Both the position numbers and the translations under genes were made by a program. The notes under the pieces are model-generated. The model did not search any database, was not told the origin of the DNA, and worked only from the letters and a program-made list of their open reading frames with translations. A stretch of DNA of 64,000 nucleotides from Amycolatopsis solani (GTDB taxonomy: Bacteria; Actinomycetota; Actinomycetes; Mycobacteriales; Pseudonocardiaceae), in assembly GCF_033441515.1 (NCBI RefSeq), contig NZ_JAWQJT010000003.1:310001-374000 (forward strand). Reading direction: 5' to 3'. This document shows, in pieces, positions 1-50,136 of the stretch. The first letter of the stretch is position 1; each line of letters starts with the position of its first letter.

Positions 1-2297
1 AACAGCACCGGACGGCGGACGTGGTCGGCCCAGTACGCCGCCGTGCCCAGCTCATCGGTGACCGGGGACGCGGTGACGGTGGACACGACCGGGAGCGCCG
101 GCGGGGCGAACTGCACCCCCGCGGCGATCCGCTCGAACTCGTCCCTCATCGCGTTCATATGCGACGAGTGAAACGCGTGGCTGACCCTTAAACGTCTAGT
201 CTTTCGGCCCCGGGCCGCGACCAGCTCCGCGACCTCGGCGACCGCGCCGGTGTCACCCGAAACGACCACCGCCTCCGGCCCGTTGACCGCGGCGATCGAC
301 AGCGGCCGCCCGCTGATCAGCTCTTCGGCCTCGGTTTCGGTGACCTGCAGCGCGGCCATCGCCCCGCCCGGCAGCTCCTGCATGAGCCGGCCGCGGGCGG
401 CGACCAGCCGGGCCGCGTCGGCCAGCGACAGCACACCGGCCGCGTGGGCGGCGGCGAACTCGCCGATCGAATGCCCGGCGAGGTAGTCGGGCCGCACGCC
501 CCACGACTCGACGAGCCGGTAGAGCGCGACCTCCACGGCGAACACCGCGGGCTGCGACCACCGGGTCTGCGCCAGCACCTCGGCGTCGTCGCCGAAGACG
601 ACGTCCCGCAGCGAGCCGGGCAGGTCGAGGTCCAGGTGCGCGCAGGCCTCGTCGAACGCGGCGGCGAACACCGGGAACCGTTCGTACAGGGCGCGGCCCA
701 TGCCCGGGTACTGCGAACCCTGCCCGGAGAACAGGAACGCGAGCTTGCCCGCAGCGGGCCGGCCGGCGTGCACCAGCGGCGACGGCGTCCCGGCGGTGAG
801 CGCGCCGAGCCCGGTCAGCAGTTCGTCGCGGTCCCCCGCGACGACGACCGCCCGCGACTCGAACCAAGCGCGGGTCGTCGCCGCCGAGAAGGCGACGTCG
901 GGCAGCGCGAGTCCGGGGTGGGCGAGCAGGTGGTCGCGCAGGGCGCGGGCCTGGGCCCGCAGGCCCTCGTCGGTGCGTGCGGACAGCCGGACCGGCACGG
1001 TCGCCGGGGCGGCGGCCGGACGCGGGTCCACCGGCGGGGCCTGCTCCAGCACCAGGTGGGCGTTGGTGCCGCTGGCGCCGAACGCGGAGATCCCGGCCCG
1101 GCGCGGGTGCCCGGTCTCCGGCCACGGCAGGCTCTCGGTGAGCAGCTCGACGCGGCCCGCGGACCAGTCGACGTGCGCGGACGGCTTGTCCACGTGCAGG
1201 GTCTTCGGCAGCAGCCCGTGCCGCATGGCCAGCACCATCTTGATCACCGCGGCCGCTCCGGCCGCGGCCTGGGTGTGACCGAGGTTGGACTTCACCGAGC
1301 CGAGCAGCAGCGGCCGTTCGCGCTCGCGACCGTAGGTGGCCAGCAGTGCCTGCGCCTCGATCGGGTCGCCGAGCTTCGTGCCGGTGCCGTGCGCCTCCAC
1401 GGCGTCCACTTCGGACGGTGCCAGCCCGGACACGGCCAGGGCGCGCTTGATGACGCGTTGCTGGGCCGGGCCGCTGGGGGCGGTGAGCCCGTTGGACGCG
1501 CCGTCGGAGTTGACCGCCGAACCCCGCACCACGGCGAGGACCGGGTGGCCGTGGCGGCGGGCGTCGGACTCGCGCTCCAGCACGATCATGCCGACGCCTT
1601 CGGACCAGCCGGTGCCGTCGGCGGCGTCGGCGAAGGCCTTGCAGCGGCCGTCCGGCGACAGCGCGCCCATCTCGCCGAACTCGACGAACCCGGTGGGGCT
1701 CGACATCACCATCACGCCGCCGGCGACGGCCAGGGAGCACTCCCCCGCCCGCAGCGCCTGGGCCGCCAGGTGCAACGCGACCAGCGAAGACGAGCACGCG
1801 GTGTCGACGCTGACCGACGGGCCCTCCAGCCCGAACGCGTAGGAGACGCGACCGGACAGCAGGCTGGCCGCCTGCGCGGTGGCCTGGTGCCCGAGGGTGT
1901 CGGTGGGCGGGGTGTAGTCGCCCGACCCGCCGCCGATGTAGACGCCGGTGTCGCCGCCGCGCAGCCCGGTGGCGTCGATGCCGGCGCGTTCGAACGCCTC
2001 CCACGCCACTTCGAGGACGAGCCGCTGCTGCGGGTCCATCACGATCGCCTCCCTCGGCGCGATCCCGAAGAACCCGGGGTCGAACTCGGCCGCGTCGTGC
2101 AGGAACCCGCCTTCCTTGGCGGCGCTGCTGCCGGGACCGTCGCCGGTCAGCGTGGTGAGGTCCCAGCCGCGGTCGGCCGGGAAGCCGCCGACGACGTCCC
2201 GCTCGTCGACGACCGCCCGCCAGAGGTCTTCGGGCGAGCCGATGCCGCCGGGGTAGCGGCAGCTCATGCCGACGATGACGATCGGGTCGTCGGTGAG
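1..2297 (-). other. PKS module 6 (partial): KS-AT(malonyl), cut by the window edge
   Basis: KS about 2297-1040 with SVDTACSSS near 1798. AT begins about 740, with [10 protein letters not shown] near 470 and SHAFHSSHM near 165 (malonyl). The reductive domains and ACP lie outside the window. The AT contains an AT-rich codon run at 186-203 on the gene strand, ACT AGA CGT TTA AGG, including a TTA leucine codon (residue 8034, positions 189-191). Leu-TTA is rare in high-GC actinomycetes and is read by the bldA tRNA, so translation here may depend on developmental stage. Confidence 0.85.
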
Positions 2298-49338: not shown

Positions 49339-50136
49339 GTGAACATCGCGGACAACGCCACGACGTCGTGGATCCGCCGTTACCACCCGGCACCCGGCGC
49401 GGGCACCCGGCTCGTCTGCTTCCCCCACGCCGGCGGCTCGGCCAGCTACTTCCACCCGGTCTCCGCGCGGTTCGCGCCGGACGTCGACGTCGTTTCGCTG
49501 CAGTACCCGGGGCGCCAGGACCGCCGCCGGGAGCCGAACCTCGCCTCGATCGCCGAGCTGGCCGACCTGATCGCCGACGAGCTGGCCGCCCTCTCCGACA
49601 AGCCGGCCGTGTTCTTCGGGCACAGCATGGGCGCGGTGCTCGCCTTCGAAACCGCGTGGCGGCTGGAACTGCGCGGCCTGCGGGCGCCGGGGGCGATCGT
49701 CGCGTCCGGGCGGCGCGGGCCGTCGACCTTCCGCGACGAGCGGATCCACGAGCGCGACGACGACGGCGTGCTCGACGAGGTCCGGGAACTCAACCGGGTG
49801 GACCGGACGGTCATCGGCGACGACGAGATCCTGCGGATGGCGCTGCCGGCGATCCGCGCCGACTACCGGGCGATCGAGACCTACGCCTGCCCGGCCGGGC
49901 GCCGCGTCCGCTGCCCGGTCACCGTGCTGATCGGCGACCAGGACCCGAAGGTGACCGCCGAGGAGGCCGGGAACTGGGGCGAGCACACCGAAGGCGGCCT
50001 CCGGCTGTCGGTCTTCCCCGGTGGGCACTTCTTCCTCGCCCGGCACCAGAGCGCGGTGAACGCGGAGCTCCAGCGGGAGCTCCAGGCCCTGGCCGCCCCC
50101 GCGGCGGCATTGCCTTCCGGGCGTGATTCAACATAA
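49339..50136 (+). CDS. Type II thioesterase (NysE-like)
   Basis: 265 residues from a GTG start. Alpha/beta hydrolase that removes aberrant acyl groups from stalled PKS carrier domains. Catalytic triad visible: Ser96 in FFGHSMGAVLAFE, Asp in LIGDQDPK, His in FPGGHFFL. The N-terminal CFPHAGGSASYF is the standard RedJ/TEII signature. Stand-alone, typical length, at the right side of the cluster; nystatin, amphotericin and natamycin clusters each carry one. Confidence 0.93.
   Translation: MNIADNATTSWIRRYHPAPGAGTRLVCFPHAGGSASYFHPVSARFAPDVDVVSLQYPGRQDRRREPNLASIAELADLIADELAALSDKPAVFFGHSMGAVLAFETAWRLELRGLRAPGAIVASGRRGPSTFRDERIHERDDDGVLDEVRELNRVDRTVIGDDEILRMALPAIRADYRAIETYACPAGRRVRCPVTVLIGDQDPKVTAEEAGNWGEHTEGGLRLSVFPGGHFFLARHQSAVNAELQRELQALAAPAAALPSGRDST

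What the first reader, a model, noticed from the sequence alone, without database searches (positions are those of the whole stretch)
1..50136. A mycosaminyl polyene locus that also carries a full methoxymalonyl-ACP pathway
Sequence: a six-module PKS with NysI/AmphI/PimS2 logic, gmd directly upstream, a DegT aminotransferase, PAS-LuxR plus three LAL regulators and a type II TE, all polyene hallmarks. Between 41603 and 45721 sits every gene of methoxymalonyl-ACP synthesis (fkbG-, H-, I-, J-, K-like). Known nystatin, amphotericin, natamycin, candicidin and rimocidin systems use malonyl, methylmalonyl or ethylmalonyl extenders; I know of no characterised mycosaminyl polyene using methoxymalonyl. 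Inference: the product could be a methoxylated polyene of a new subclass. The alternative is two adjacent clusters fused in one region.
Basis: partly seen in the sequence, partly recalled or inferred. Interest (0 to 1): 0.85.

Follow-up and report, generated by a model that had tools for sequence, protein, structure and literature searches.

The report
Giant polyene cluster with methoxymalonyl genes
The window holds one end of a single very large gene cluster for a sugar-bearing polyene, already predicted in print in 2022, which carries the genes for the unusual methoxymalonyl building block, probably uses it at up to three positions, and also contains a set of mannitol-uptake genes.

Summary
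Observation confirmed: a six-module AmphI-like PKS, gmd, DegT, PAS-LuxR, three LALs, a type II TE and an intact fkbG-H-I-J-K cassette. The genome behind the window shows one cluster of about 180 kb, not two fused ones: 8 PKS proteins, one loading module, 29 extension modules, one terminal thioesterase, one glycosyltransferase. The next ketosynthase on the contig is 1.16 Mb away. AT positions match the Amycolatopsis lexingtonensis hexaene-polyol cluster predicted in a 2022 review (PMC8944477), which already proposed a methoxymalonyl extender, so the headline is not new.

Two refinements are mine. (1) AT8, AT24 and AT29 share FAAH and three further features with ATs that lie near fkbH (19 of 20 in 80 genus genomes; the 20th is on a contig without it). 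I predict three methoxymalonyl units, including C44, where polyenes normally carry a carboxyl; the review drew methyl at C44 and C2. (2) A mannitol PTS operon lies inside the cluster and recurs beside polyene-type gmd genes in other Amycolatopsis clusters, though not in all.

No product is known; the chemistry is prediction. Published bafilomycin work found no AT feature that marks methoxymalonyl, which weakens motif reading.

The parts
1..24290 (-). Hexamodular AmphI-like PKS, modules 6-11 of 29 in the inferred order (cut by the window edge; complete 8846 aa at G000:C3:307750-334290)
   Evidence: Six KS/AT/ACP sets; same module count and AT pattern in G003, G057, G074, G079
12516..13490 (-). 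AT8, third module of this protein, FAAH motif (DNA match at 12865-12881); predicted methoxymalonyl-specific, C44 branch
   Evidence: AT alignment, genus-wide motif test, signature columns
2330..3827 (-). Module 10 post-AT region with degenerate KR (no TGGTG NADPH motif, no YxxxN found), so a ketone is expected, as in the hemiketal region of AmphI-type proteins
   Evidence: Sequence, motif table
24427..25458 (-). GDP-mannose 4,6-dehydratase, AmphDIII type
   Evidence: PF16363 406 bits
25653..26708 (+). DegT ketosugar aminotransferase, AmphDII type (mycosamine or perosamine)
   Evidence: PF01041; nearest solved relatives are perosamine synthetases
26968..27234 (-). HPr phosphocarrier, GLHARP present
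   Evidence: TIGR01003 over cut-off
27252..28943 (-). PTS enzyme I, GGPTSHTAI present
   Evidence: TIGR01417 over cut-off
28977..30032 (-). Zinc alcohol dehydrogenase family protein; proposed mannitol-1-phosphate oxidation (substrate inferred)
   Evidence: Hits all below their curated cut-offs
30029..30448 (-). PTS IIA, fructose/mannitol type
   Evidence: Hits below cut-offs; AIPH present
30474..30782 (-). PTS IIB, mannitol type, CDAGMGSS present
30817..31929 (-). PTS IIC, mannitol-specific (MtlA)
   Evidence: TIGR00851 503 bits, over cut-off
32009..32944 (-). 1-phosphofructokinase FruK
   Evidence: TIGR03828 over cut-off
33503..34309 (-). PAS-LuxR regulator (PimM type by analogy)
   Evidence: GerE over cut-off, weak PAS
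34630..37440 (-). LAL regulator 1
   Evidence: AAA_16 + GerE
37447..40356 (-). LAL regulator 2
   Evidence: AAA_16 + GerE
41603..42268 (+). fkbG, O-methyltransferase
   Evidence: PF01596 214 bits; 90-100% identical in 7 other genomes
42377..43462 (-). fkbH, glyceryl transferase/phosphatase
   Evidence: TIGR01686 342 bits
43474..44595 (-). fkbI, acyl-ACP dehydrogenase
   Evidence: 463 bits to FkbI 1R2J
44588..44863 (-). fkbJ, discrete ACP
   Evidence: PF00550 just over cut-off; Ser in GLVSSM
44864..45721 (-). fkbK, 3-hydroxyacyl dehydrogenase
   Evidence: PF02737 + PF00725
46123..48924 (-). LAL regulator 3
   Evidence: AAA_16 + GerE
49339..50136 (+). Type II thioesterase
   Evidence: PF00975 172 bits
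50181..50942 (+). DeoR/GlpR-family regulator; lies next to PTS genes in relatives
   Evidence: beside PTS genes in G004, G022, G026, G044, G062, G067, G070 among others
50944..52104 (-). Cytochrome P450, taken as the AmphN homologue
   Evidence: PF00067; 60% identical to MjmOI; the review reports an AmphN homologue, 64%, for A. lexingtonensis

Best explanation
The window is the right-hand part of one gene cluster of about 180 kb for a glycosylated hexaene-polyol polyketide of the meijiemycin kind, in A. lexingtonensis or a near relative. Inferred assembly: an acetate starter is loaded by the KSQ module; modules 1-6 build a hexaene; the AmphI-like protein in the window (modules 6-11) builds the hemiketal region that carries the aminosugar; modules 12-28 build a long polyol/ene chain; module 29 ends in the thioesterase. 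FkbH loads glyceryl units from 1,3-bisphosphoglycerate onto FkbJ, FkbK and FkbI oxidise them and FkbG methylates them, giving methoxymalonyl-ACP, which AT8, AT24 and AT29 take as extender (methoxy at C44, C12 and C2); AT17 takes methylmalonyl (C26). Gmd, DegT and the GT outside the window make and attach mycosamine (or perosamine). The PTS operon probably imports mannitol or fructose to feed GDP-mannose and 1,3-bisphosphoglycerate. Shown by sequence: gene content, single cluster, module count, intact cassette, AT motifs, conservation. Inferred: assembly order, AT specificities, sugar identity, PTS role, product. The cassette's reaction order is established knowledge of the FkbG-K pathway.
For: Single line: 30 KS at C3:190-334 kb in 8 ORFs, one KSQ, one C-terminal TE (a 96% identical 2045-aa protein is listed with PF00975). 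Same module count and AT pattern in 4 of 4 other clusters read in full (G003, G057, G074, G079). AT8/17/24/29 motifs, the P450 and a second gmd/DegT pair elsewhere in the genome match the published A. lexingtonensis description. Cassette complete and tightly packed. D-F-[AV]-A-H-S in AT context: 20 ATs in 80 genus genomes, 19 with FkbH within 91 kb on the same contig; the 20th, in G064, is on another contig of a genome that carries this fkb cassette; 0 of 10 non-AT matches have FkbH that near on their contig. In a class sample of 296 genomes, the one AT-context match apart from the window has FkbH 5 kb away. AT8, AT24 and AT29 share F and A of the motif, an inserted residue, a Trp and a Glu with 11 or 12 of 12 other FxAH ATs compared, against 36 YASH ATs. 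They form one group with one further FxAH AT, support 0.99, or 0.95 without the motif columns. Control: the 15 distinct GHSQG ATs of two other PKS clusters in this genome are YASH, and the genome's only FkbH over cut-off is this one.
Against: The bafilomycin authors found no significant sequence difference between their methoxymalonyl and methylmalonyl ATs (PMC3679948, passages), so motif reading is not a sure guide. antiSMASH, as reported in PMC8944477, calls AT8 and AT29 methylmalonyl. An AmphN-type P450 is kept, which suits a methyl, not a methoxy, at C44. Eight of the 20 FxAH ATs are the same AT8 in this cluster type. I did not measure how often any AT lies within 91 kb of FkbH genus-wide. 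At four discriminating columns the three ATs do not follow the other FxAH ATs. Within their group, the three alone have support of only 0.52 (0.22 without motif), and the wider grouping with FVAH ATs (0.913) was not recovered. No experimentally proven methoxymalonyl AT could be included.
Confidence: 0.68

Rival explanations
1. Published default: only AT24 uses methoxymalonyl (C12). AT8 and AT29 take methylmalonyl, and the AmphN-type P450 oxidises the C44 methyl to a carboxyl group as in amphotericin.
For: antiSMASH prediction and AmphN homologue reported in PMC8944477; the P450 is present and 89-97% identical in the 4 other clusters read in full.
Against: AT8 has every FxAH signature residue that AT24 has, and AT29 all but one (column 140); the three group together with one other FxAH AT even without the motif columns. 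The PKS next to gmd in G026 and G067, genomes with no FkbH near that cluster, has YASH in its third module, the AT8 position.
Confidence: 0.25
2. Two adjacent clusters fused in one region: the cassette serves another PKS.
For: The cassette lies 17 kb from the PKS, with the PTS operon and regulators between them.
Against: No other KS on the contig until 1,498,616; the arrangement is the same in 4 of 4 other clusters read in full; this PKS itself has FAAH ATs.
Confidence: 0.02
3. The cassette is a relic, or supplies hydroxymalonyl only; the product has no methoxy group.
For: I found no product or expression data.
Against: All five genes have open frames and family matches, and are 82-100% identical in the 4 other clusters read in full; fkbG is 90-100% identical in 7 other genomes.
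Confidence: 0.05

Closest known systems
Amycolatopsis lexingtonensis hexaene-polyol cluster (PMC8944477, section 5, in silico)
   Same: Same AT numbering with FAAH at 8, 24 and 29 and YASH at 17, AmphN homologue, second mycosamine gene set elsewhere in the genome; P450 and GT 97% identical to proteins named A. lexingtonensis
   Different: The review draws methyl at C2 and C44; I predict methoxy at all three FAAH sites. The words 'phosphotransferase system' and 'PTS' were counted zero times in its main text; its supplements were not available
Meijiemycin (mjm), Streptomyces SD50
   Same: Polyene-polyol with one aminosugar; P450 60% identical to MjmOI; grown with mannitol to raise production (review text)
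   Different: Perosamine as sugar; the passage read mentions no methoxy branch for it; whether mjm holds PTS genes was not tested
Amphotericin/nystatin/natamycin
   Same: Hexamodular AmphI-type protein and DIII/DII/DI gene set; PAS-LuxR and LAL regulators (recalled)
   Different: 29 extension modules (18 in amphotericin, recalled); methoxymalonyl cassette
FK520/ansamitocin/bafilomycin methoxymalonyl-ACP loci
   Same: fkbG-H-I-J-K gene set; fkbI 463 bits to the solved FkbI (that it belongs to FK520 is recalled)
   Different: Here in a mycosaminyl-polyene-type cluster

Membership tests
[quoted passage not shown]
   Modules 2-6 have DH HxxxGxxxxP and KR motifs; the module 1 DH reads HVVEDRILFP
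Glycosylated polyene macrolide/polyol cluster (features as in PMC8944477 section 2) | Hexamodular AmphI-type protein with branching AT and hemiketal ketone | tested here: met
   ORF 1-24290: AT8 of branched type, degenerate KR in its fifth module
Glycosylated polyene macrolide/polyol cluster (features as in PMC8944477 section 2) | AmphDIII, DII and DI homologues | tested here: met
   gmd and DegT; GT at C3:269888-271285, 77-92% identical to three proteins named polyene glycosyltransferase (P0122, P0123, P0126)
Glycosylated polyene macrolide/polyol cluster (features as in PMC8944477 section 2) | AmphN-type P450 | tested here: inconclusive
   P450 at 50944-52104, 60% to MjmOI; AmphN itself was not compared here, the review's 64% is for A. 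lexingtonensis
Glycosylated polyene macrolide/polyol cluster (features as in PMC8944477 section 2) | Sugar is mycosamine rather than perosamine | not testable with these tools
   The review states that sequence does not separate the two
Methoxymalonyl-ACP pathway | fkbG, H, I, J and K all present with open frames | tested here: met
Methoxymalonyl-ACP pathway | A cognate AT that accepts methoxymalonyl-ACP | tested here: inconclusive
   Motif association and signature columns for AT8/24/29; no biochemical reference, and bafilomycin ATs show no distinctive sequence
Two fused clusters | Second loading module, second TE or a further PKS next door | tested here: not met
   the other seven PKS C-termini were read, not searched for TE domains

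The most novel reading that the evidence does not exclude
This lineage has replaced the methyl-then-carboxyl branch of the mycosaminyl hemiketal region (C44, the counterpart of C16 in amphotericin, numbering recalled) by a methoxy group laid down directly by AT8, while keeping the AmphN-type P450 for another or altered reaction (for example O-demethylation), and has gained a mannitol PTS inside the cluster so that one imported sugar supplies both the GDP-aminosugar and the methoxymalonyl units.
Probability: 0.3. Interest if true: 0.65.

Novelty: new variant of a known kind. Interest (0 to 1): 0.45.

Why it matters
The carboxyl and aminosugar of polyene antifungals are linked to their toxicity and activity (recalled). 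A natural polyene with a methoxy group where the carboxyl sits would be a ready-made test of that structure-activity rule. Sugar-uptake genes as a recurring part of polyene clusters could explain the reported use of mannitol for meijiemycin and suggest feeding conditions for silent clusters. The cluster itself was predicted in 2022, so the value lies in the changed extender assignment and the PTS link.

Tried and rejected
Gargantulide and other 50- to 60-membered macrolides were considered for the giant PKS and dropped once the AT pattern matched the published hexaene-polyol. A PimM-box scan (consensus recalled, up to 2 mismatches, 13 regions) found no site at the PTS operon: G000 has one site, at C3:174800; G079 and G074 one each and G003 three, at the far end of the cluster; G057 none, but its stretch stops before that end; G026 and G067 two each and G062 one, beside gmd; G008, G070, G022, G073 and G081 none. 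PAS-LuxR control of the PTS is therefore unsupported. The 60 solved chains shown (of 112) name no methoxymalonyl AT. A protein search with AT29 gave no named reference; in its 120 listed hits I read 230 AT motifs: 130 GHSQG with YASH, 4 with FAAH, 5 with FVAH, the rest other or unread; their genome context was not checked.

Slips: searches used window:42299-43771(+), the antisense shadow of fkbH and not a gene. In one search, window:50198-51346(-) was a chance ORF, and some frames begin upstream of the likely start. In one search the DH match printed for module 1 is spurious; the true motif was read. Odd AT labels (such as TAGH, RASH, AAGH, FAKH) come from a too-short search window; GHSQG ATs were re-read, where ATs with an identical 25-residue stretch were counted once. 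One search left out 1 of the 13 FxAH ATs found outside this cluster type (G069:C18:46483).
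Full report
WHAT IS THERE. The window is G000:C3:310001-374000. Adjacent stretches of the same contig (140-400 kb) contain the window letter for letter and show eight large PKS ORFs. In inferred order they hold: loading KSQ plus modules 1-5 (C3:185884-213108); modules 6-11 (307750-334290, the ORF in the window); 12-16 (282608-307723); 17-18 (273133-282600); 19-20 (261363-269684); 21-24 (241309-261339); 25-28 (221453-241003); and 29 with TE (215312-221449). 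The order is inferred from collinearity, one loading module and one TE; docking domains were not analysed. It reproduces the published AT numbering. A UDPGT-family glycosyltransferase lies at 269888-271285; two putative ABC-transporter genes follow it, and three large LAL-like ORFs lie at 176.7-185.9 kb (both from their sequence; no family search). From those ORFs to the P450 the cluster spans 185 kb, from the first PKS ORF 176 kb. No KS lies below 190 kb on this contig, and the next above 334 kb is at 1,498,616.

SAME CLUSTER IN PRINT. PMC8944477 (start of abstract, its sections 2, 5 and 7, and further passages; supplements not available) describes an A. lexingtonensis cluster for a hexaene polyol: AT24 with FAAH and methoxymalonyl at C12, AT8 and AT29 also FAAH, AT17 YASH, an AmphN homologue, and a second AmphDIII-DI-DII set with a vancoresmycin-like cluster. 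In the window's genome FAAH falls at AT8, AT24 and AT29 and YASH at AT17; a P450 is present; and a second gmd/DegT pair (78% and 74% identical) lies at C1:3925253-3928723, 22 kb before another PKS. Proteins named A. lexingtonensis are 97% identical to the P450 and GT. Five of six sister genomes that carry this cluster at high identity also have a second gmd, so the species is not settled: A. lexingtonensis or a near relative (G003, G035, G042, G057, G064 and G000 have two; G074 and G079 one). By an fkbG at 90% identity or more, this cluster type is in 8 of 80 genus genomes, the window's included; five were read in full. A search for 'lexingtonensis' with 'polyene' listed 6 papers and one for 'meijiemycin' 5; by title and start of abstract none reports the product.

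AT SPECIFICITY. F[AV]AH is the odd motif at the YASH/HAFH site. In 80 genus genomes the DNA pattern for D-F-[AV]-A-H-S gave 30 matches in 20 genomes; the reversed control pattern gave 1. The pattern misses AGC/AGT serine codons and did not find AT24 and AT29 here. Twenty matches, in 13 genomes, lie in an AT, 101-103 residues after GHSQG. Nineteen have FkbH within 91 kb on the same contig; the twentieth, in G064, is on a contig without fkbH, in a genome whose copy of this fkb cassette and of the PTS lie on other contigs. None of the 10 other matches has FkbH that near on its contig. Eight of the 20 are AT8 of this cluster type; 12 are from five other genomes. A class sample of 296 genomes gave, apart from the window, 29 matched loci, one of them in an AT, with FkbH 5 kb away. 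Against 36 YASH ATs, AT8, AT24 and AT29 share with 12 other FxAH ATs the F and A of the motif (12 of 12), and an inserted residue, a Trp two columns on and a Glu (11 of 12 each); at columns 34, 180, 187 and 195 they do not follow the other FxAH ATs. The three group with one more FxAH AT at support 0.99 (0.95 without motif columns); the three alone reach 0.52 and 0.22. One search, with fewer ATs, put the FAAH ATs together at 0.969 and FAAH with FVAH at 0.913; one search did not recover the wider group. Against: the bafilomycin authors saw no significant difference between methoxymalonyl and methylmalonyl ATs (PMC3679948, passages), and antiSMASH calls AT8 and AT29 methylmalonyl. 'FAAH' with 'methoxymalonyl' occurs in one held paper, PMC8944477. 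Passages on AT motifs in PMC6164871, PMC5331325 and PMC7242659 give none for methoxymalonyl.

CONSEQUENCE. AT8 sits in the AmphI-like protein where amphotericin-type lines add the methyl that AmphN oxidises to a carboxyl group (section 2 of PMC8944477). If AT8 adds a methoxy group, the retained P450 has no such methyl. In G026 and G067 the PKS next to gmd has YASH in its third module, and no FkbH lies near that cluster.

MANNITOL PTS. FruK, IIC, IIB, IIA, an alcohol dehydrogenase, enzyme I and HPr run in one direction with gaps of at most 79 bases, and HPr, EI, IIA and IIB active-site motifs (recalled) are present. The operon is at the same place in the four other clusters read in full, at 79-100% identity. 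IIC occurs in 24 of 80 genus genomes. Of the 20 that also have a gmd at 70% identity or more, 12 have both within 14 kb (8 of this cluster type, plus G026, G067, G062 and G008), 2 at 45 kb (G020, G029), 2 on different contigs (G075, G083) and 4 far apart (G004, G022, G044, G070); the other 4 IIC genomes have no such gmd. Seven genomes have such a gmd and no IIC. I read the surroundings of all 16 IIC genes outside this cluster type (60 kb in G026 and G067, 20 kb in the rest): 6 have PKS modules (G026, G067, G062, G008, G029, G020), 2 have LAL-like genes but no PKS (G075, G048), 8 have neither. So the operon recurs in several cluster types, is not needed for every one, and also exists outside clusters. 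This genome has one IIC; besides this enzyme I there is one homologue at 54%, with a stop inside the match, and one weak partial hit. Role: inferred supply of fructose-6-phosphate for GDP-mannose and of 1,3-bisphosphoglycerate; the review reports mannitol among the conditions that raised meijiemycin output. Two searches for mannitol/PTS with polyene clusters listed 12 and 5 papers; by title and start of abstract none describes this link. In PMC4700089 the one 'PTS' hit is part of a DOI.

VERDICT. Observation confirmed; one cluster, not two; the headline was predicted in 2022; the three-site methoxymalonyl claim and the PTS link are refinements to be tested.

Noticed in passing
window 26968-32944: Mannitol-type PTS operon (FruK-IIC-IIB-IIA-ADH-EI-HPr) inside the polyene cluster, recurring beside polyene-type gmd and PKS genes in some other Amycolatopsis clusters.
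   Followed up: partly
window 50181-50942: A DeoR-family regulator that in relatives sits next to the PTS genes is here 17 kb away, beside the type II TE, as if regulators and fkb cassette had been inserted between them.
   Followed up: partly
L130 and L133 (G026:C1:48349-49002, G067:C1:404996-405622): An FkbG-like methyltransferase (80% and 66%) sits next to the PTS in two clusters with no FkbH near; its role there is unexplained.
   Followed up: partly
window 41302-41562: Short DUF742 ORF just before fkbG, 66-94% identical in the four other clusters read in full.
   Followed up: no
G000:C1:3920001-4060000 (L100-L106): Another large PKS cluster with a gmd and DegT of the same kind nearby, as the review reports for a vancoresmycin-like cluster of A. 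lexingtonensis; the GHSQG ATs read in it are YASH.
   Followed up: partly
G000:C3:261363-282600 (modules 17 and 19): Module 17 (YASH AT) has a KR with a degenerate NADPH site and module 19 has no KR region, so further ketones are expected.
   Followed up: no
G000:C3:140001-400000: A motif scan found no ferredoxin in this stretch, although amphotericin-type clusters have one beside AmphN (recalled).
   Followed up: partly
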